In this document: in pieces, positions 2,636 through 13,202 of the stretch | Numbering within the stretch: position 1 is the first letter of the stretch | Layout: every line of letters begins with the position of its first letter | Origin: a virus | IMG/VR virus record: IMGVR_UViG_3300017782_000238 | Location: 1-23,029 of that record | DNA: 23,029 nt | Reading direction: 5' to 3' (one strand) | The notes under the pieces: generated by a model | The model's input: the letters and a program-made list of their open reading frames with translations, nothing else | What the model was told of the DNA's origin: nothing | Databases searched by the model: none | Made by a program: the position numbers and the translations under genes

Positions 2636-3862
2636 ATGCAGAAATTTCAAGATTACCTCGTAGAGGACAAAAATACACATCTTGAACATCTGGAAGACGA
2701 GATAATTAATAATGGAACTAAAGGTGCTAAAACCGCAATTGAATTTCTAAAGTCTATCAAAAAGATGTTACAAGGCAAAAAGGGGTCTACCGTATCCGTC
2801 AAATGGGATGGTGCACCTGCTGTATTCTGTGGTATCAATCCAGAGAACGGAAAGTTCTTTGTTGCTACTAAATCTCTATTCAATAAAACACCTAAAATCA
2901 ATTATACTAATTCAGATATATCTAGAAATCACGGTGGTGCGTTAGCAGATAAACTAAAAGAATGTTTAAAGCACTTACCTTCTCTAGGTATCAAAGGCAT
3001 TTTACAAGGCGATTTACTCTTTACAAGTGGTGATAAAAAGACTGCCACAGTAGATGGTACAAAGTCAATCGTATTTACACCAAACACTATATCATATGCT
3101 GTACCTGTTGTTAAGACAGGATTGTTTGGTAGTTCTCTTTACAATAATATTGATAAAGCAAAAGTTGGTATTATATTTCATACATCATATTCAGGTAGTA
3201 CAATCGCAGGATTAAAAGCAGCCTTTGGTGCAAGTGTAAGTTCATTAAAGAAAAATAAAAATGTATTCTTTGATGACGCTAATTACAAACAAGCTGGTGT
3301 TGCATTTGATGACGCTGAAGAAAAGGCATTTGATAATATAATCAGAATGGCAGAGGGTTCTGCTTACAAAGCAGGTAAGTTTATTGACTTACTCAAAAAA
3401 GATCAAGGACCATTATCTCTAGGCATTCAACTAAAAACATTTTTCAATACTTACATAAGACAAGGCACAGCAATTACAAATACATCTAAGTTAGCAAATA
3501 ATTTTGAAGTATATTTTAGAGGTAGAATTAAAAAAGAAATAGATAGTAAGAAAACACCAGCAGCAAAACAAAAGTATGAAGAAATACTAAACGCTGGTAT
3601 CAAAATATTAAGACCAAACAAAGATGGTCTCTACTTTGCTATTGCAACATATATAACATTTCAATCAGCGAAAGCTGTATTATTAAGAAAATTAAATCAG
3701 ATACAAAGTATCGGTTCATTTTTAAGAACTAAAGATGGATACAAAGTTACAAATCCTGAAGGATATGTAGCAATCAAAGGATCTGGTGCTGTTAAACTTG
3801 TTGATAGATTAGAGTTCAGTAGAGCAAACTTTAACATGGCAAAAGATTGGGTAAAAGGATGA
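2636..3862 (+). CDS. Putative covalent nucleotidyltransferase (ligase-like KxDG motif) protein
   Basis: A 408-aa protein. Residues 54-64 read SVKWDGAPAVF, where K56-x-D58-G59 matches motif I of the ligase/capping nucleotidyltransferases, in which the lysine carries AMP or GMP. Further along are ATKS (77-80), GILQGDLLF (121-129), which could stand for motif IV, and KVGIIFHT (176-183). From memory, similar proteins in marine myoviruses are filed as a DUF (possibly DUF6267); I could not check this. The N-terminus MQKFQDYLVED resembles a capsid-targeting peptide with an LxE cleavage site at residues 8-10. The gene overlaps the next by an ATGA junction. Bases around the KxDG codons are unusually GC-rich (about 48% by my count in 2761-2820). 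An RNA or DNA end-modifying role is possible but unproven. Confidence 0.5.
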   Translation: MQKFQDYLVEDKNTHLEHLEDEIINNGTKGAKTAIEFLKSIKKMLQGKKGSTVSVKWDGAPAVFCGINPENGKFFVATKSLFNKTPKINYTNSDISRNHGGALADKLKECLKHLPSLGIKGILQGDLLFTSGDKKTATVDGTKSIVFTPNTISYAVPVVKTGLFGSSLYNNIDKAKVGIIFHTSYSGSTIAGLKAAFGASVSSLKKNKNVFFDDANYKQAGVAFDDAEEKAFDNIIRMAEGSAYKAGKFIDLLKKDQGPLSLGIQLKTFFNTYIRQGTAITNTSKLANNFEVYFRGRIKKEIDSKKTPAAKQKYEEILNAGIKILRPNKDGLYFAIATYITFQSAKAVLLRKLNQIQSIGSFLRTKDGYKVTNPEGYVAIKGSGAVKLVDRLEFSRANFNMAKDWVKG

Positions 3863-4143
3863 TAGATTCATTTAGAACATTTATTACAGCCGCACAAAAA
3901 ACAAAGAAGTGTCCAGAGGGATATAGATTTGATAAAAGATTACAAGTTTGTGTGCCTATTGGAGTAAGTAGATATTATCCTTACTATGGTGCAAGAAGTA
4001 ACGGAGATCAACAAACTGATACATCTAACGACAACAATCAGAACGGTAATGGATCTAATGGTAATAATCAAAATGGTAATGGTCAAAGTGGTGGTAATGG
4101 TAGTAATAATACAGGCAACGGAAATGGTGGTAACGGATCATGA
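3859..4143 (+). CDS. Small protein with Cys pair and Asn/Gly-repeat tail
   Basis: A 94-aa protein. I use ATG 3859 (ATGA overlap with the previous stop) rather than TTG 3847. The N-terminus MIDSFRTFITAAQK is amphipathic and similar in spacing to the capsid-targeting-like leaders nearby. Residues 17-34 (KCPEGYRFDKRLQVCVPI) hold two cysteines, C18 and C31, in a C-P-x-G-[YW]...C-V-P pattern also found in related form (CWTGYK...NCVP) in the 809-aa protein. Residues 57-94 are almost only Asn, Gly, Ser and Gln and are likely disordered. No enzymatic function is apparent. A linker or internal head protein is possible. Confidence 0.6.
   Translation: MIDSFRTFITAAQKTKKCPEGYRFDKRLQVCVPIGVSRYYPYYGARSNGDQQTDTSNDNNQNGNGSNGNNQNGNGQSGGNGSNNTGNGNGGNGS
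4027..4140 (+). repeat. Low-complexity coding repeat (Asn-Gly-rich tail)
   Basis: Imperfect tandem AATGGT/GGTAAT units encode the Asn/Gly/Ser tail of the 94-aa protein. Such repeats can change copy number by slippage, so tail length may vary between related phages. Confidence 0.6.
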
Positions 4144-6389
4144 AAAGTTTTAATCAATTTAAAGAATCAATCATTGATATACCTAGACGCACATATGCGC
4201 CTGGTGTTTTTGATGATGAAGATACAGACAATCCTAAAATAAAAGATAGTGTTTTAAGAATGATTACAAAACAGTTTCAAGAATTTGAGACTGAATATCC
4301 TATACTTAAATATTCTCTAATAGGTTCTATACTTACAAAAAGATATCGTAATGACGCTGATTTAGATATTAATGTTTTGTTTGATGTGCCAGAAGAAAAA
4401 AGAGAAGAAGAAAGATTACGACTATCTAAAAAATATCTATCATCTAAAAATCCTGATAACATACAAGGTAAACTAATACCAGGCACAAGACATCCTGTCA
4501 ATTATTATTTTATTACAGATGAAGAAACTTATGACGATCAAAATAAAAAAGCAGACGCTGTATTTGATATCAAAGGTCAGTCATTCGTAAAACGACCAGA
4601 AGATTTTGAGTTCAATCCTAACTTATATATGAGAGACTTTCAAAGACAAGTTGACAAGATTGATATACTTAAAGGTGAATTGAAAAGAGATATTATAGAT
4701 TATGATGAATTGACAGAATTAAAACCTGGTGAGATAAAAGATTTAGAAAAAAGAACAAGCAACAAACTTGGTGAGATAGAAAAGAGCATACAAGACCTAA
4801 CAAACATAGGTGATAAAATTGATACTGAAAGAAGAGCTGCATTTGACACAGATATGACACCAGATGAAATCAAAACTTACAGTATTAAGAACAGATTACC
4901 TGCAAATGTAATCTATAAAATGTTAGAAAAGTATCACTATCTTAAACTATTGAAAAAATGTAAAAAGATTTTAGACGATGGTGAAGTTACAGATGATGAA
5001 ATAGATTCGTTAAAATATGTTGATGACGCCCAAAGCGAAGCGAGGGCGGTTGGTGAGGCATTAAACAAAGACAGCACCTTGGTATTCGCCTTTGGAAGGT
5101 TCAACCCTCCTACCATAGGCCACGCTAAACTTATGAGTAAGGTGATAACTGAAGCACGAGGCAATCGGGCAAATCATGTTGTCTATGCTAGTGCCTCTAC
5201 CGACAGTAGAAAAAATCCATTAGATGTAAATACAAAAGTTCGTTTTATGAAAAAGATGTTTCCACAAAATAACATCAAAGCTGCAGGCGGCAATCAAAGA
5301 ACATTCATGGAGATATTAAAGTTCATGGATCGTATGTATGGTAATATTGTCATGATTGCAGGTAGTGATAGAGTTCGTGAGTTTCAAACACTTGCAGACA
5401 AATACAATGGTAGAGATTATAATTACAAGTCAATCAAACTAGTATCATCAGGAGAAAGAGATCCTGACGCTGAAGGTGTTACAGGTATGTCTGCTTCTAA
5501 GATGAGAGAAATGGCAAAGAGAAACGATTATAGAAGTTTTAAACAAGGTGTGCCTAACTTATCAGATTCAGATAGTAAACAATTATTTGACGCTGTTAAA
5601 AAAGGTATGGGTATCAAAGAAGGTATCGAGAGTTTTACTAACTTTTTAAATAATGATTTACGAGAAGAATATCATCAAGAAAAAATATTCAATGTCGGTG
5701 ATATGGTAGAACATTTAGATGGCACAATGGGTATGATCGTAAGACGAGGCTCTAATTATGTGTCAATGGAAACTGATGATGGTCTTATTAAGAAGGCATG
5801 GTTGTATGATGTGCAATCACTAGAAGAAGGACCTAGAATACCTAGAAAGAAAGGTCAACCTGCAGGTTCAGATAAACACTCTGATTTATATACGGATGAA
5901 AATCCAAAAGGCACAATCAAAGGTTTAGGGTTTAAAGATGTAGAAACTGCAAAAGCGAGTGTAGCAAAAATCAAATCATCTGGTAAAACTCATGCACATA
6001 AGATACAGGCTGCGATTGCAATGGAACAAAGAGCAAGAGTTATGGGTAAAAAGGCAGAAGCCGCAGTATATCGTAAGTATATCAATCAAATGAAAGAGAA
6101 AACTAAGAGAATGAACAAAGAGGAAAGATTACTTGATGTTCTAGAAAAAGAGTTAAATGTAAAAGAATCTTACGAAATAGGCACAGATGAGTATGCTCAA
6201 CACACAATGAAAATGACGCCAGGTCAACCTGTGCAGAATTTTAGAAAGATTACAGACAAAATTACCGATAAGGATCTTGAAAAATTTAAGAATGAAGATG
6301 AAACAATAGATAAATATAAGAAAAGATTTAAAGAAAACTGGAAAGTCGAACTAGACAAAGCAGTTGAAAGAATGAAGGAACAACTATAA
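4140..6389 (+). CDS. Pol-beta-type nucleotidyltransferase fused to NMNAT-like cytidylyltransferase and C-terminal modules
   Basis: A 749-aa multidomain protein. Residues 1-10 (MKSFNQFKES) look like a capsid-targeting peptide. Residues 58-80 (GS...RNDADLDINV) match the Gly-Ser and Asp-x-Asp pattern of polymerase-beta-type nucleotidyltransferases. A helical linker follows (about 165-300). Residues 314-470 are an NMNAT/cytidylyltransferase Rossmann domain: GRFNPPTIGH with T325-x-G-H328, and SASKMR at 451-456 in place of ISSTxxR. IKE|G (492-495) then leads to a small beta module (FNVGDMVEHLDG...). LEE|G (561-564) leads to a Lys-rich helical module (SDKHSDLYTDENPKG...HKIQAAIAMEQRA), which I recall as a stand-alone protein in other marine phages. 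Both sites fit the T4 prohead-protease consensus. A role in NAD or nucleotide metabolism is inferred. GC rises sharply from about 5025, at the domain junction. Confidence 0.75.
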   Translation: MKSFNQFKESIIDIPRRTYAPGVFDDEDTDNPKIKDSVLRMITKQFQEFETEYPILKYSLIGSILTKRYRNDADLDINVLFDVPEEKREEERLRLSKKYLSSKNPDNIQGKLIPGTRHPVNYYFITDEETYDDQNKKADAVFDIKGQSFVKRPEDFEFNPNLYMRDFQRQVDKIDILKGELKRDIIDYDELTELKPGEIKDLEKRTSNKLGEIEKSIQDLTNIGDKIDTERRAAFDTDMTPDEIKTYSIKNRLPANVIYKMLEKYHYLKLLKKCKKILDDGEVTDDEIDSLKYVDDAQSEARAVGEALNKDSTLVFAFGRFNPPTIGHAKLMSKVITEARGNRANHVVYASASTDSRKNPLDVNTKVRFMKKMFPQNNIKAAGGNQRTFMEILKFMDRMYGNIVMIAGSDRVREFQTLADKYNGRDYNYKSIKLVSSGERDPDAEGVTGMSASKMREMAKRNDYRSFKQGVPNLSDSDSKQLFDAVKKGMGIKEGIESFTNFLNNDLREEYHQEKIFNVGDMVEHLDGTMGMIVRRGSNYVSMETDDGLIKKAWLYDVQSLEEGPRIPRKKGQPAGSDKHSDLYTDENPKGTIKGLGFKDVETAKASVAKIKSSGKTHAHKIQAAIAMEQRARVMGKKAEAAVYRKYINQMKEKTKRMNKEERLLDVLEKELNVKESYEIGTDEYAQHTMKMTPGQPVQNFRKITDKITDKDLEKFKNEDETIDKYKKRFKENWKVELDKAVERMKEQL

Positions 6390-7334: not shown

Positions 7335-9764
7335 ATGAGTATAAAGTTTTCAGATTTAAAAGAATTTACAGTAGCTCAACTAAAGAAGTTACAAAAAGAA
7401 TACGAACCTTTACGAGGTAAAACTATATCAATACCTAATGCAAATAAATTAAGTGCTATGATGGATAGACTATCAAAAATGCAACTTAAAGTATTAGCTG
7501 CAGCAGATATACCATTCGTAACAACTAGTGCTATATCTAAACTTGTCATGAAACATGGAATGAAATTTACAGATTTTACTGCTAAACAACTAAACATGAG
7601 TGAGGCAGATGAGTTACAAACTGAGGCTTGTTGGACTGGTTATAAACAAGTAGGATTAAAAAAGAAAGGCAATAAAATGGTACCTAATTGTGTGCCAGAA
7701 AGTGTGGTTAAAGAAATGTTTGGAGACATAATAAACGAAATAAATGATTTAAGAGGATCTTTTTCAAATGCTCAATTAGAGAGAATGAAACAAGAATGGA
7801 AAAATAAACCTGCTTCTGCTTTAACACAAGGCGTTAAGCAAATGATTATGAACATGGACTCACCAACGAGAGCTGCACTAGAAAACGCAAAAATTAATCA
7901 CATATCAAAATTTGCTGGCTCTACATTTGAACAAAAAGAAAGTGTTGATCCATCTTGTAAGATTTGTGAAGGCGAAGCTTGTCAATGTGCTCAAGGCGAA
8001 GATTTAAACGAAGCAAAAAATCTGAATGATCTTAAAAGGATGTTAGATAAAACTACTCTATTAACACCTAAAGAAAAGAAAGATATTCAATCTTTAGAAA
8101 AGTCTATGGGTTCAAAGGGTTATCAGAAAGTATTAAAACAAATGTTTTCAGAAGATATACAAGAAGGTATGGTCAAAAGAGTAATGCAGACTATACATGA
8201 TAAACTTTCAAAAGAAGGTGGCGCTGCTGGGTTTGATGATTTAGCAAAAGAAGTAAAAAAAGAATTTGGTATTACTATCACTAAAGACACTCTGAAAAAT
8301 ATGCCTGGTGTCAAACAACACAGAGATGGTGATTACATATTAGAAGCAGACTTATCAAAATCGCAAGTTAAAATGGTTCATAAGGCTGCAGACAAAATGT
8401 CAAAGAAAGACTTTGTACAAAGATATGGTAAAGACGGTGATAGTGTTAGATATGCAACAGCAACTAACATGGTCAAAAAGAAACTTGGTATTGCAGAAAT
8501 GACTAAGGAAAAAATCAATAAGGGAGAAAATAAAATGCAAGAACAATCTTATAAAGACAAGTTCAACGCTACCATGAAAGACTTTGGGATTAAATCCCTT
8601 GGCGATCTGAAATCTGATGACGAGAAGAAAAAGTTTTTCAAAGCAGTTGACGCTAAACATGACGCAAAAGACGAAATGAAAAAAATGAATGCTATGAAAA
8701 TGAAAGAAGATGAAGTAGCACCAGAACCTATGAAAAAATTAAATGTAGGCGATAAAAAAGAAATGAAAAAAATGAAAGAAGAAGCAGAACCATTAACAAG
8801 AGACACTATGTCTTTGGCTGATAAAGATCCAATCAATGCTATGAAAATGAATGCTATGAAAATGCCTATCAGATCCATGAAAATGAATGCTATGAAAGAT
8901 ATGGATAGCAAAGATGAAATGATGAAAAAAGAGATGATGAAAAAAGAAATGATGAAGAAGATGGAAATGATGAAGGCTGAAACAGATCCAGAAAAGATGG
9001 AGATGATGAAGAAAGAAATCATGACAAACATGAAGAACATGGATTCTATGGACAAAGAAGAAATGATGAAGAAAATGGAAATGGCCATGAAAGAATATGG
9101 CACCATGATGGCGATGAAAATGAAAGAAGGATTTGCTTCTGACGCTCAAAGAAGGGCTGCGTTTGCAAGTGGTTACAAAGAAAAAGGCAAAGACAAAAAA
9201 GAGATGATGTCAAAAATGAATGCCATGAAAAAGATGAATTCCATGAAGAAAATGAATGCTAACGTAAACATTGACAAAGATGAAATGAAAAAGATGAATG
9301 CTATGAAGATGAAAGAAGCTTTAGGGCAAGAACCTATGAAGAAAATGGATTCTAAAGGCACAGAGGGTGGCGCTAAAACAGACGCTGATATGTCAAAAGT
9401 AAAAGACAAACAAAAACCTTTGATGGCGATGATGAAAAAAGAAAAGTATTTACCACTTAAAGCAGGTAGTATTCAGGCAGTAGTTGCTGAAATGCAAATG
9501 AAAGAACAAGAACTAGTTGAAGTAAAAGGTAATGAACTTGAAAAAATGATACAAGACTATTTAAGAAAAGGCGGAACAATTAAAAAACTTCCACCTGCAT
9601 TAGCAAAAGGCATGAAACCATCTGAAATGAAACCACATGAGATTGGTAAAATGGGTATAATCAAGTCTATGAAAATGAAAGAAGTAAGAGAGTTTGTTGA
9701 CACTTATAATAAACACTTCTTATTAAACTACAAAGCAGAAGAACTTATTAATGAAGTACAATAA
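7335..9764 (+). CDS. 809-aa protein with Met/Lys-rich repeat region, probable internal head or scaffold-like protein
   Basis: Order of parts: helical N-terminal module (1-85) beginning MSIKFSDLKEF; EACWTGYKQVGLKKKGNK...PNCVP (97-121), a Cys-pair module; a helical stretch; C208KIC-EGEA-CQC (208-218), a possible metal-binding cluster; LNE|A (224-227) and ILE|A (335-338), both prohead-protease-like sites. Residues 441-680 form a Met/Lys/Asp/Glu-rich region with 54 Met in 240 residues by my count (units such as MNAMKMK, EMMKK). Within it is FASDAQRRAAFASGYKEKGK (600-619). A helical C-terminus follows. An in-frame ATG at 8535 has a strong ribosome site and may give a second, 409-aa product. The region is charged and probably helical. 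A DNA-associated core or internal protein is inferred, and no family is recognised. Confidence 0.6.
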   Translation: MSIKFSDLKEFTVAQLKKLQKEYEPLRGKTISIPNANKLSAMMDRLSKMQLKVLAAADIPFVTTSAISKLVMKHGMKFTDFTAKQLNMSEADELQTEACWTGYKQVGLKKKGNKMVPNCVPESVVKEMFGDIINEINDLRGSFSNAQLERMKQEWKNKPASALTQGVKQMIMNMDSPTRAALENAKINHISKFAGSTFEQKESVDPSCKICEGEACQCAQGEDLNEAKNLNDLKRMLDKTTLLTPKEKKDIQSLEKSMGSKGYQKVLKQMFSEDIQEGMVKRVMQTIHDKLSKEGGAAGFDDLAKEVKKEFGITITKDTLKNMPGVKQHRDGDYILEADLSKSQVKMVHKAADKMSKKDFVQRYGKDGDSVRYATATNMVKKKLGIAEMTKEKINKGENKMQEQSYKDKFNATMKDFGIKSLGDLKSDDEKKKFFKAVDAKHDAKDEMKKMNAMKMKEDEVAPEPMKKLNVGDKKEMKKMKEEAEPLTRDTMSLADKDPINAMKMNAMKMPIRSMKMNAMKDMDSKDEMMKKEMMKKEMMKKMEMMKAETDPEKMEMMKKEIMTNMKNMDSMDKEEMMKKMEMAMKEYGTMMAMKMKEGFASDAQRRAAFASGYKEKGKDKKEMMSKMNAMKKMNSMKKMNANVNIDKDEMKKMNAMKMKEALGQEPMKKMDSKGTEGGAKTDADMSKVKDKQKPLMAMMKKEKYLPLKAGSIQAVVAEMQMKEQELVEVKGNELEKMIQDYLRKGGTIKKLPPALAKGMKPSEMKPHEIGKMGIIKSMKMKEVREFVDTYNKHFLLNYKAEELINEVQ
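8521..8537 (+). promoter_or_regulatory. Internal ribosome site and in-frame start inside the 809-aa gene
   Basis: AGGGAG at 8521-8526 sits eight bases before an in-frame ATG at 8535 (Met401). Translation from here would give a 409-aa protein (8535-9764) beginning MQEQSYKDKFNATMKDFG and carrying the whole Met-rich region. The site is as good as those of separate genes in this window. Confidence 0.5.
8655..9374 (+). repeat. Degenerate Met/Lys codon repeat (ATGAAR-rich)
   Basis: Imperfect repeats of ATGAAAATG, AATGCTATG and GAAATGATGAAR encode residues 441-680 of the 809-aa protein. Units vary in order and spacing, consistent with growth by slippage or unequal recombination. On the other strand the same repeat creates long spurious ORFs rich in His, Phe and Ile. 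Confidence 0.8.
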
Positions 9765-10345: not shown

Positions 10346-10873
10346 ATGAGAGATTACAAAGAATTTTACAGAGAAGCGAAAGGCGATATGCCTCGTATCT
10401 ATGTTGATATGGATGGAGTGTTATGTGATTTTGTCTTAGCTGCAAAAAGAGCTACAGGGCAAGACTGGACAGGTTTACGATCTGGTCAAGATTGGGAATC
10501 CATAAGAAACACTAAGAATTTTTGGGCAAATATGCCTTGGACTAGAGATGGTAAACAACTCTGGTCTTATCTCAAACAGTATAATCCTCATATTCTATCA
10601 GCATTTAGTCCAGATGATCCGAACTGTAAACCAGGAAAGATGAGATGGTTAAGAAAAGAAGTAGGATATACGCAAAATTTTATGATAAACATTGTGAGGC
10701 GTAGAGAAAAGAAAGACTTTGCTATGAAAGGTAGTGATGTGGGTAAGAAACCTGCAATTTTAATTGATGACTATCCTAAAAATGTAACACAATTTAGGGC
10801 AGCTGGGGGTATAGGAATATTACATACGAGTACTTCATCTACTATAAATCGGTTGAAGAAGATTGGTTTTTGA
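10346..10873 (+). CDS. HAD-family 5'(3')-deoxyribonucleotidase-like phosphatase
   Basis: A 175-aa protein. HAD motif I is D21-M-D23-G-V-L-C-D-F, with D21 the nucleophile and D23 the general acid. Ser84 (HILSAFSP) can be motif II, Lys135 or a nearby Lys motif III, and LIDDYPKN (139-146) is motif IV with D141/D142 binding Mg2+. This fits the NT5C type, which dephosphorylates deoxyribonucleoside monophosphates. The first 14 residues precede the catalytic domain and read MRDYKEFYREAKG, the closest match here to the T4 capsid-targeting sequence (MKTYQEFIAEA), with YRE|A at 8-11. AAAGGA at 10331-10336 serves as ribosome site. If the leader works, this enzyme would be packed in the head and delivered to the host, where it could change dNMP pools early. 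Confidence 0.75.
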   Translation: MRDYKEFYREAKGDMPRIYVDMDGVLCDFVLAAKRATGQDWTGLRSGQDWESIRNTKNFWANMPWTRDGKQLWSYLKQYNPHILSAFSPDDPNCKPGKMRWLRKEVGYTQNFMINIVRRREKKDFAMKGSDVGKKPAILIDDYPKNVTQFRAAGGIGILHTSTSSTINRLKKIGF

Positions 10874-12604: not shown

Positions 12605-12778
12605 ATGGACAAACTAACACAGGAAGAATTAAACGGTCTATCGCCAAGAGCGAGAAAACAACACGAAGATTCTAATGAGGTTCTTGCTGAAATAACAACA
12701 GAAAATCCTAATAAAGATTTAGTTGTTGAGGAAGATAAACCTAAAAAGAAAAAGGAAAAACAAAATGAAGAGCTTTAA
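12605..12778 (+). CDS. Small 57-aa charged protein
   Basis: The ORF starts at ATG 12605 after GGAGAAAAG (12593-12600) and ends at TAA 12778. It reads MDKLTQEELNGLSPRARKQH, then an acidic middle, then a basic DKPKKKKEKQNEEL tail. It is soluble and rich in Lys and Glu, with no domain recognised. Its 3' end overlaps the next gene by 14 nt, which supports it being translated. The good ribosome site and tight spacing are the main evidence. Confidence 0.55.
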   Translation: MDKLTQEELNGLSPRARKQHEDSNEVLAEITTENPNKDLVVEEDKPKKKKEKQNEEL

Positions 12779-13202
12779 ACAATTTAATGAAGCAGGATAT
12801 ACAGATAGATTTGCTCATCAATCAGTAGAAGATGATAATGTGGGTATCTTTGATGTTGCAAATCCTGATTCTTTGCAAAAAGTTAATGCTTATGTAGGTG
12901 CAATTGCTGAACAAGAATATTTACAACCAGGTGCTGCTATGCACCAACTAGCGATGAAACTAGGAACTATTGGTCTAAGTTACACTATACCTAAAATTGA
13001 AGGTAATAAAGGCAAATCAGTAGTAGAAGTTTCTCAGTTTGGTGGAAGATATGGCAAGACATCTGATAACACTACTTCAGGTGAAGGCGATATTGAAAAC
13101 GGCGATGGTATTTCTCATAGAAAAGAAGGTGGTTTAAAACTGGAATTCAATTGGGAAAAACAATCAAATAACACTTACAAAGTATTTGCAAATTTAGTTT
13201 AA
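12765..13202 (+). CDS. 145-aa conserved phage protein with capsid-targeting-like N-terminus
   Basis: I use ATG 12765 rather than TTG 12723, because AAGGAA precedes it and the N-terminus MKSFKQFNEAG matches its paralogue-like leader MKSFNQFKES at 4140. FNE|A falls at residues 7-10. The body has DNVGIFDVANPDSLQKVNAY and AMHQLAMKLGTIGLSYTIPK, which I recall as conserved among marine myoviruses, then a Gly/Ser-rich loop and a C-terminal beta strand (YKVFANLV). No catalytic motif is seen. It is likely a virion or assembly protein, but the evidence is only the leader and the neighbourhood. Confidence 0.6.
   Translation: MKSFKQFNEAGYTDRFAHQSVEDDNVGIFDVANPDSLQKVNAYVGAIAEQEYLQPGAAMHQLAMKLGTIGLSYTIPKIEGNKGKSVVEVSQFGGRYGKTSDNTTSGEGDIENGDGISHRKEGGLKLEFNWEKQSNNTYKVFANLV

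What the first reader, a model, noticed from the sequence alone, without database searches (positions are those of the whole stretch)
4140..6389. Pol-beta nucleotidyltransferase fused to NMNAT-like domain, with protease-type cut sites between modules
The protein shows GS...DADLD (62-76), TIGH (325-328), SASKMR (451-456), and then IKE|G (492-495) and LEE|G (561-564) exactly where modules change. The last module resembles a protein found alone in other phages. This suggests a polyprotein that is split in the prohead. The two transferase types together could make or modify a nucleotide such as NAD or a nucleotidylated target.
Basis: partly seen in the sequence, partly recalled or inferred. Interest (0 to 1): 0.7.

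Follow-up and report, generated by a model that had tools for sequence, protein, structure and literature searches.

The report
Head-packaged two-transferase phage protein
A marine T4-like phage encodes a large protein that joins two nucleotide-transferring enzymes and starts with the same kind of short address tag that phage T4 uses to load proteins into its head, so it is probably carried in the virus particle and injected into the host with the DNA.

Summary
Window 4140-6389 is an intact 749-codon gene of a marine T4-like (Kyanoviridae-type) phage. A pol-beta nucleotidyltransferase domain and an NMNAT/NadD-fold domain are both supported: Pfam matches in 32 of 32 relatives, and the NMNAT fold by Foldseek. 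All motifs are where stated, and module edges coincide with gene edges in other phages. The N-terminus MKSFNQFKE|S has the layout of the T4 capsid-targeting propeptide (IPII/IPIII MKTYQEFIAE|A). Eleven fetched isolate orthologues of the NMNAT part begin like this (e.g. MKNFSSFLTE|A, MKSFLQFLKE|A). Three of these phages have published mass-spectrometry evidence for the protein in virions, and T4-GC190 was also detected in S-SM1. Three other unrelated window genes carry the same tag. So it is very probably internal-head, injected cargo. The 'polyprotein' part is weak: internal (L/I)xE sites are not more frequent than chance, IKE|G is missing in the sister clade, and LxE at 563 is in a third of relatives. 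Substrates are unknown. Virion-borne NMNAT-like proteins were already reported; new here are the fused nucleotidyltransferase and the T4-type tag shared by unrelated cargo families.

The parts
4140..6389 (+). Gene for the 749-aa fusion protein
   Evidence: ORF; relatives in at least 520 IMG/VR stretches; closest isolate homologue HTVC008M gp130, 52% identity in the NMNAT part
4140..4166 (+). Capsid-targeting-like propeptide, residues 1-9 MKSFNQFKE|S
   Evidence: aromatic residues at 4 and 7, E9 and S10 invariant in 32 relatives; same layout as T4 IPII/IPIII and as isolate NMNAT orthologues
4170..5039 (+). Pol-beta-superfamily nucleotidyltransferase module, residues about 11-300
   Evidence: PF01909 in 32/32 relatives; no tblastn match in 50,697 isolate phage records
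4323..4367 (+). GS ... DxD motif, residues 62-76
   Evidence: G62, S63, D74, D76 invariant
5073..5609 (+). NMNAT/cytidylyltransferase-like module, residues about 312-490
   Evidence: PF01467 in 32/32; PHROGs 3041 and 395, E 1e-68 and 1e-64; Foldseek to NadD/PPAT
5112..5123 (+). TIGH motif, residues 325-328
   Evidence: T325, G327, H328 invariant
5490..5507 (+). SASKMR motif, residues 451-456
   Evidence: all six positions invariant
5613..5624 (+). IKE|G, possible but unproven internal protease site, residues 492-495
   Evidence: [IL]xE kept in most of one clade with variable P1', absent in the sister clade
5625..5822 (+). SH3-like module with a targeting-tag-like lead-in (IESFTNFLNN), residues 496-561
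   Evidence: stand-alone homologues start MKDFKKLREEA, MKDFREIKNKA, MRDFKKLREQA; PHROG 4808
5820..5831 (+). LEE|G, possible but unproven internal protease site, residues 561-564
   Evidence: [LI]xE in 10 of 31 relatives; stand-alone next module in S-SM2 starts at the following residue
5832..6119 (+). Mobile module, residues 565-660
   Evidence: about 80% identical to the N-terminus of an S-SM2 protein encoded between terminase genes; present or absent among relatives
6120..6386 (+). C-terminal helical module, residues 661-749
   Evidence: kept in most relatives; predicted helices
2636..3862 (+). Neighbour: DUF6267 protein with tag MQKFQDYLVE|D and ligase-like motifs KWDG and EGYV
   Evidence: PF19782 E=4e-122; motifs invariant or nearly so in 27 relatives
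10346..10873 (+). Neighbour: 5'-nucleotidase-like (NT5C) protein with tag MRDYKEFYRE|A
   Evidence: PF06941; N-terminus
12765..13202 (+). Neighbour: 145-aa protein with tag MKSFKQFNE|A

Best explanation
This is an internal head (injected) protein of a marine T4-like phage. Its first nine residues act as a T4-type capsid-targeting propeptide that recruits the protein into the prohead core. The gp21-type prohead protease then cuts after Glu9, leaving the enzyme inside the DNA-filled head, and it enters the cell with the genome. There the NMNAT-like domain makes an adenylylated small molecule, most likely NAD(P)-type, at the start of infection, while the pol-beta domain transfers a nucleotide to an RNA or protein target. 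Shown here: domain content, modularity, and the tag shared with T4 internal proteins and with MS-detected orthologues. Inferred: packaging of this particular protein, the cut after Glu9, injection, and both chemistries. The confidence given is for packaging by the tag; I put about 0.35 on the NAD chemistry.
For: T4 IPII/IPIII read MKTYQEFIAE|A in the T4 record; published mutagenesis puts targeting in residues 4 and 7 and processing in 8 and 10, with gp21 cutting after L/I-x-E (PMC9026906). Eleven fetched isolate NMNAT orthologues have this layout: S-CREM2 MKNFSSFLTE|A, S-SCSM1 MKSFLQFLKE|A, S-SZBM1 MRFRQFIIE|A, S-SM2, Syn33, P-SSM7, S-CREM1, P-SSM2, S-N03, S-B64, Melnitz. The first three were found in purified virions by MS (PMC10665884, PMC9602691, PMC9146016), and T4-GC190 in S-SM1 (PMC3037559). 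In IMG/VR loci, M[KR]x[FY]xx[FY] occurs at 98 of 1335 Met near ORF starts versus 6 of 6102 internal Met, in 9 families. 56 of 68 distinct tagged N-termini carry [LIVFY]xE|[AGS] with Glu at 9 or 10, none at 20-24. Four of 26 window genes, in four families, satisfy the full rule; background 8.7e-4 per 14-mer.
Against: No proteomics exist for this phage or for any nucleotidyltransferase fusion. The nearest isolate, HTVC008M, has MKTLKELLRKK at its NMNAT protein, not a clean tag, and no HTVC008M protein meets the strict full rule. Some cyanophage NMNAT proteins lack a tag (S-WAM2; S-PM2, where the domain is fused behind DUF6267). P3 here is Phe rather than the T4 Leu/Ile. The rule was widened (Glu at 9 or 10, aromatic P3) after seeing the data, and homologues are not independent. 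Proteins detected in virion preparations could be contaminants, as some of those authors say. Substrates are unknown and Asn121 may mean the pol-beta domain is not a normal transferase.
Confidence: 0.78

Rival explanations
1. Head polyprotein: after entering the prohead the protein is cut at IKE494|G and LEE563|G, and at Glu9, releasing separate nucleotidyltransferase-NMNAT, SH3-like and C-terminal pieces.
For: Both sites lie in low-confidence linkers at real module edges. In one clade [IL]xE is kept at 494 while P1' varies G/R/S/K. LxE stands at the 563 junction with or without the next module. N-terminal fusions keep the [FLV]xE|S of the former start inside the chain, e.g. ...MKTFKTFVE|SIIDIPR in L030.
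Against: [LI]xE is not enriched in the protein (6 vs 8.0 expected). Site 494 is absent from the sister clade and LxE at 563 is in 10 of 31 relatives. No excess of such sites in the homologous HTVC008M cluster, while the true head-core proteins do show one. T4 cargo is mostly trimmed at its ends.
Confidence: 0.3
2. A cytoplasmic auxiliary metabolic enzyme (NAD or CDP-type synthesis) made during infection; its detection in virions reflects contamination.
For: The enzyme folds are metabolic; isolate records annotate it as cytidyltransferase or NMNAT; authors of two proteomes raise this caveat.
Against: It does not explain a T4-type targeting N-terminus shared by nine unrelated families, detection in several independent virion proteomes, or flanking genes also annotated as virion proteins in S-SCSM1.
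Confidence: 0.12
3. The short N-terminus is simply the first helix of the enzyme or a translation-start bias of these genes, unrelated to T4 targeting.
For: Lys at codon 2 is common at phage gene starts, the tag is short, and residues 1-15 are modelled with low confidence including a short helix.
Against: The pattern includes a Glu at 9 or 10 followed by A/S/G in 82% of tagged starts, hardly anywhere else nearby, across unrelated folds; the T4 register is reproduced exactly in cyanophage orthologues.
Confidence: 0.1

Closest known systems
T4 internal proteins IPI, IPII, IPIII and Alt (capsid-targeting-sequence cargo)
   Same: N-terminal M-K-x-aromatic-x-x-aromatic tag followed by a hydrophobic-x-Glu site; gp21-type protease gene in the related isolate; orthologues of the NMNAT part found in virions
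   Different: Cargo is a large two-enzyme fusion with no similarity to IPs or Alt; P3 is Phe; processing not shown
Cyanophage virion-associated NMNAT/cytidylyltransferase (T4-GC190; S-CREM2 ORF154, S-SCSM1 ORF91, S-SZBM1_140)
   Same: Homologous NMNAT-like domain (about 45-48% identity in the closest cyanophages) followed by the SH3-like module; same kind of N-terminal tag
   Different: Those lack the pol-beta domain; the tag is not described in the papers found
Pelagibacter phage HTVC008M gp130 'cytidyltransferase'
   Same: 52% identical NMNAT domain, SH3-like module, same gene neighbourhood (DUF6267, 5'-nucleotidase)
   Different: No nucleotidyltransferase domain and only a weak tag
Polyvalent proteins (Iyer et al. 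2017, PMC5512222)
   Same: Multidomain proteins of phages and plasmids, some with pol-beta transferases, thought to be packaged and injected
   Different: Their pol-beta domains are mostly from firmicute elements with ArdC; cyanophages are not mentioned; no T4-type tag described

Membership tests
T4-type capsid-targeted internal head proteins | N-terminal tag with aromatic residues at 4 and 7 | tested here: met
   F4 and F7 in the window protein; F4 nearly invariant in 32 relatives
T4-type capsid-targeted internal head proteins | Processing site L/I-x-E at the end of the tag | tested here: inconclusive
   F-K-E|S: Glu9 and Ser10 invariant, but P3 is L/I in only 17 of 32 relatives
T4-type capsid-targeted internal head proteins | Phage encodes a gp21-type prohead protease with a compatible major-capsid cut site | tested here: inconclusive
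   Not in this 23-kb fragment; HTVC008M gp088 and S-SZBM1_178 are annotated proteases, with candidate capsid sites FLGE|I and ILTE|A
T4-type capsid-targeted internal head proteins | Present inside virions and cut at the tag | not testable with these tools
   Only orthologues without the pol-beta domain have published virion MS
Pol-beta nucleotidyltransferase superfamily | hG[GS] motif and DxD | tested here: met
   G62, S63, D74, D76 invariant; PF01909 in 32/32
Pol-beta nucleotidyltransferase superfamily | Third catalytic acid on the next strand | tested here: inconclusive
   Strand 119-125 holds invariant Asn121 at the expected place; the fold was not matched independently by Foldseek
NMNAT/NadD-type nucleotidylyl transferases | (H/T)xGH and S-S/A-x-x-x-R-type motifs on a Rossmann-like fold | tested here: met
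   TIGH and SASKMR positions invariant; Foldseek probability 1.0 to NadD, PPAT, FAD synthetase
NMNAT/NadD-type nucleotidylyl transferases | Uses NMN or NaMN as substrate | not testable with these tools
   The fold is shared with PPAT, FAD synthetase and cytidylyltransferases
Prohead-processed polyprotein | Conserved protease sites between modules above chance | tested here: not met
   Not enriched; 494 site missing in the sister clade, 563 site in a third of relatives
Prohead-processed polyprotein | Separate mature fragments in virions | not testable with these tools
   Needs peptide mapping of virions

The most novel reading that the evidence does not exclude
Marine T4-like phages share one T4-type address tag across many unrelated enzyme families (NMNAT, pol-beta nucleotidyltransferase, DUF6267 ligase-like, 5'-nucleotidase, PAP2 phosphatase, P-loop kinase). 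They would load a changeable kit of nucleotide- and RNA-end-processing enzymes into the head, with fused proteins such as this one cut apart in the prohead, to act in the first minutes of infection, for example restoring NAD or repairing RNA broken by host defence.
Probability: 0.2. Interest if true: 0.85.

Novelty: new variant of a known kind. Interest (0 to 1): 0.58.

Why it matters
If the tag is what it looks like, head cargo of some of the commonest ocean phages can be read from about ten residues at gene starts, turning many hypothetical proteins into testable injected proteins. It would explain why an NMNAT-like enzyme keeps turning up in cyanophage virion proteomes, which authors could not decide was cargo or contamination. 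The nucleotidyltransferase fusion, not found in isolate genomes but present in hundreds of environmental contigs, adds an enzyme to that cargo.

Tried and rejected
Internal cut sites as a strong polyprotein signal: rejected after shuffling and conservation tests. Homology between the window nucleotidyltransferase and the pol-beta-like S-CREM2 gp156 found in virions: none detectable by hhalign, so a parallel case, not an orthologue. PDB sequence search with the single protein and with the profile: no significant match. tblastn of the nucleotidyltransferase half against isolate phages: no match. A Foldseek match for the nucleotidyltransferase domain: not seen among the listed hits, which are dominated by the NMNAT domain. 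A clean tag scan of HTVC008M: no protein there meets the full rule, although looser MK/MR-aromatic starts include gp134, gp139, gp142 and gp143 of the homologous cluster. Literature searches for 'capsid targeting sequence' with 'cyanophage' gave only the T4 review, and DUF6267 is in no held paper; subscription papers are not covered.

Full report
WHAT IS THERE. The window is a 23-kb virus record from IMG/VR. Its gene order matches Pelagibacter phage HTVC008M gp126-gp149: DUF6267, the 'cytidyltransferase', 5'-nucleotidase, DNA primase, ribonucleotide reductase. ORF 4140-6389 encodes 749 aa. Pfam finds NTP_transf_2 at 44-97 and CTP_transf_like at 317-458, both just below the curated cut-off in the window copy but matched by all 32 aligned relatives with best E of 3.9e-6 and 2.1e-6. 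G62, S63, D74, D76, T325, G327, H328 and S451-R456 are invariant. An AlphaFold2 model (32 sequences, mean pLDDT 66) gives both enzyme domains at about 80 pLDDT and low-confidence linkers at 293-308, 494-514 and 562-597. Foldseek against PDB matches the second domain to NadD, PPAT and FAD synthetase with probability 1.0. No listed hit covers the first domain, so its fold rests on Pfam and motifs. Asn121 is invariant on the strand where the third metal-binding acid of this superfamily would be expected (inference), so its activity is uncertain.

MODULES. The nucleotidyltransferase half has no tblastn match in 50,697 isolate phage records but relatives in at least 520 stretches of IMG/VR. Among relatives, module 565-660 comes and goes, and upstream modules can be added: a PAP2 phosphatase in L030 and L052, a zeta-toxin-like P-loop kinase in L081 and L067. 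Module 565-660 is about 80% identical to the start of an S-SM2 protein encoded between the terminase genes. The SH3-like module is a separate gene in S-PM2, S-WAM2 and S-RIM44. In S-PM2 the NMNAT domain is fused behind DUF6267.

THE N-TERMINAL TAG. T4 IPII and IPIII begin MKTYQEFIAE|A (read from NC_000866). The review PMC9026906 states that residues 4 and 7 direct targeting, 8 and 10 processing, and that gp21 cuts after L/I-x-E. The window protein begins MKSFNQFKE|S. Across relatives the first eight residues vary (MKSFRLFKE, MKQFKDYIKE, MKKFREIIE, MKFKDYVLE) while Glu9-Ser10 is invariant. Isolate orthologues of the NMNAT protein repeat the T4 register: S-CREM2 MKNFSSFLTE|A, S-SCSM1 MKSFLQFLKE|A, S-SM2 MKSFFQFLSE|A, Syn33 and P-SSM7 MKKFSAFLTE|A, S-CREM1 MKRYTNFLSE|A, S-B64 MKKFSAFLSE|A, S-N03 MKGFSNFLIE|A, P-SSM2 MKSFSQFLTE|T, Melnitz MKKFSEIIE|A, S-SZBM1 MRFRQFIIE|A. 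The 15 IMG/VR cyanophage-type NMNAT orthologues examined follow it too. Exceptions exist: S-WAM2, S-PM2 and HTVC008M.

STATISTICS ON THE TAG. In the fetched IMG/VR loci M[KR]x[FY]xx[FY] is at 98 of 1335 Met in the first 35 codons of ORFs against 6 of 6102 deeper Met, in nine families. The site [LIVFY]xE|[AGS] has Glu at residue 9 or 10 in 56 of 68 distinct tagged starts and never at 20-24; untagged starts have it at 20-24 in 2.5%. In the window, 4 of 26 genes from four families meet the combined rule, with a background of 8.7e-4 per 14-mer. Caveats: homologues are not independent, and the rule was widened after looking.

VIRION EVIDENCE FROM THE LITERATURE. The NMNAT-like protein was detected by MS in purified virions of S-CREM2 (ORF154; PMC10665884), S-SCSM1 (ORF91; PMC9602691), S-SZBM1 (_140; PMC9146016) and, as T4-GC190, S-SM1 (PMC3037559). 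PMC10665884 also cites S-CBWM1. The authors of PMC10665884 and PMC9602691 could not exclude contamination. S-CREM2 gp156, also detected, is a separate pol-beta-like protein two genes away from the NMNAT gene, not detectably homologous to the window domain.

POLYPROTEIN TEST. [LI]xE occurs 6 times (8.0 expected by shuffling); [LI]xE[GA] 3 times (0.87 expected, p about 0.05). [LI]xE aligned to residue 494 is in 13 of 31 sequences, essentially one clade; in the sister clade the linker reads LAAS. At 563 it is in 10 of 31. The HTVC008M cluster gp126-143 shows no excess of [LIVF]xE[AGS] (11 vs 12.3), while portal, protease, scaffold and capsid proteins do (13 vs 6.4, p 0.01). The internal cuts are therefore possible but not supported beyond position. 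Points in their favour: N-terminal fusions keep the former start and its xxE|S inside the chain, and the SH3 module keeps an F-x-x-F lead-in like the MKDFKKL start of its stand-alone homologues.

CONCLUSION. The best reading is an injected internal-head enzyme of the T4 capsid-targeted kind with a new domain combination. Prohead packaging is likely, trimming after Glu9 is likely, internal splitting is open, and the substrates are unknown.

Noticed in passing
window 2636-3862: DUF6267 (unknown function in Pfam) has invariant K56-W-D-G and E375-G-x-V plus K387, like motifs I, IV and V of the covalent nucleotidyltransferase/ligase superfamily; Foldseek's weak top hits include a DNA ligase complex, T4 RNA ligase 2 and Naegleria RNA ligase (E 0.03 to 1, not significant). 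It also carries the tag MQKFQDYLVE|D.
   Followed up: partly
window 10346-10873 and 12765-13202: A 5'-nucleotidase-like protein (MRDYKEFYRE|A) and a 145-aa unknown (MKSFKQFNE|A) carry the same T4-type head-targeting start.
   Followed up: partly
L093:7013-7726 (S-CREM2 gp156): A stand-alone pol-beta-like nucleotidyltransferase found by MS in virions, two genes from the NMNAT gene; Pfam NTP_transf_2 just above cut-off.
   Followed up: partly
L030:7452-8000, L052:7341-8000, L081:7275-8000: PAP2-type phosphatase or zeta-toxin-like P-loop kinase fused in front of the nucleotidyltransferase; in L030 the old tag-like start is still inside the chain.
   Followed up: partly
L088:4001-4255, L090:3149-4297: Likely annotation errors in isolate records: the SH3-like protein is named 'ribonucleotide reductase alpha subunit' and an NMNAT protein 'ribonucleotide reductase A'.
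   Followed up: no
window 7335-9764: An 809-aa protein with a long Met/Lys-rich low-complexity stretch (repeats like MKKMNAMKM), function unknown.
   Followed up: no
window 5832-6119; L120-L126: Module 565-660 is 62-82% identical to sequences in seven MAG contigs assigned to unrelated taxa; these may be phage contigs binned with hosts.
   Followed up: no
L131:3864-4382 (P-SSM7 T4-GC119): A different protein family starting MKTYSQFIEE|G, almost the T4 internal-protein tag itself.
   Followed up: no
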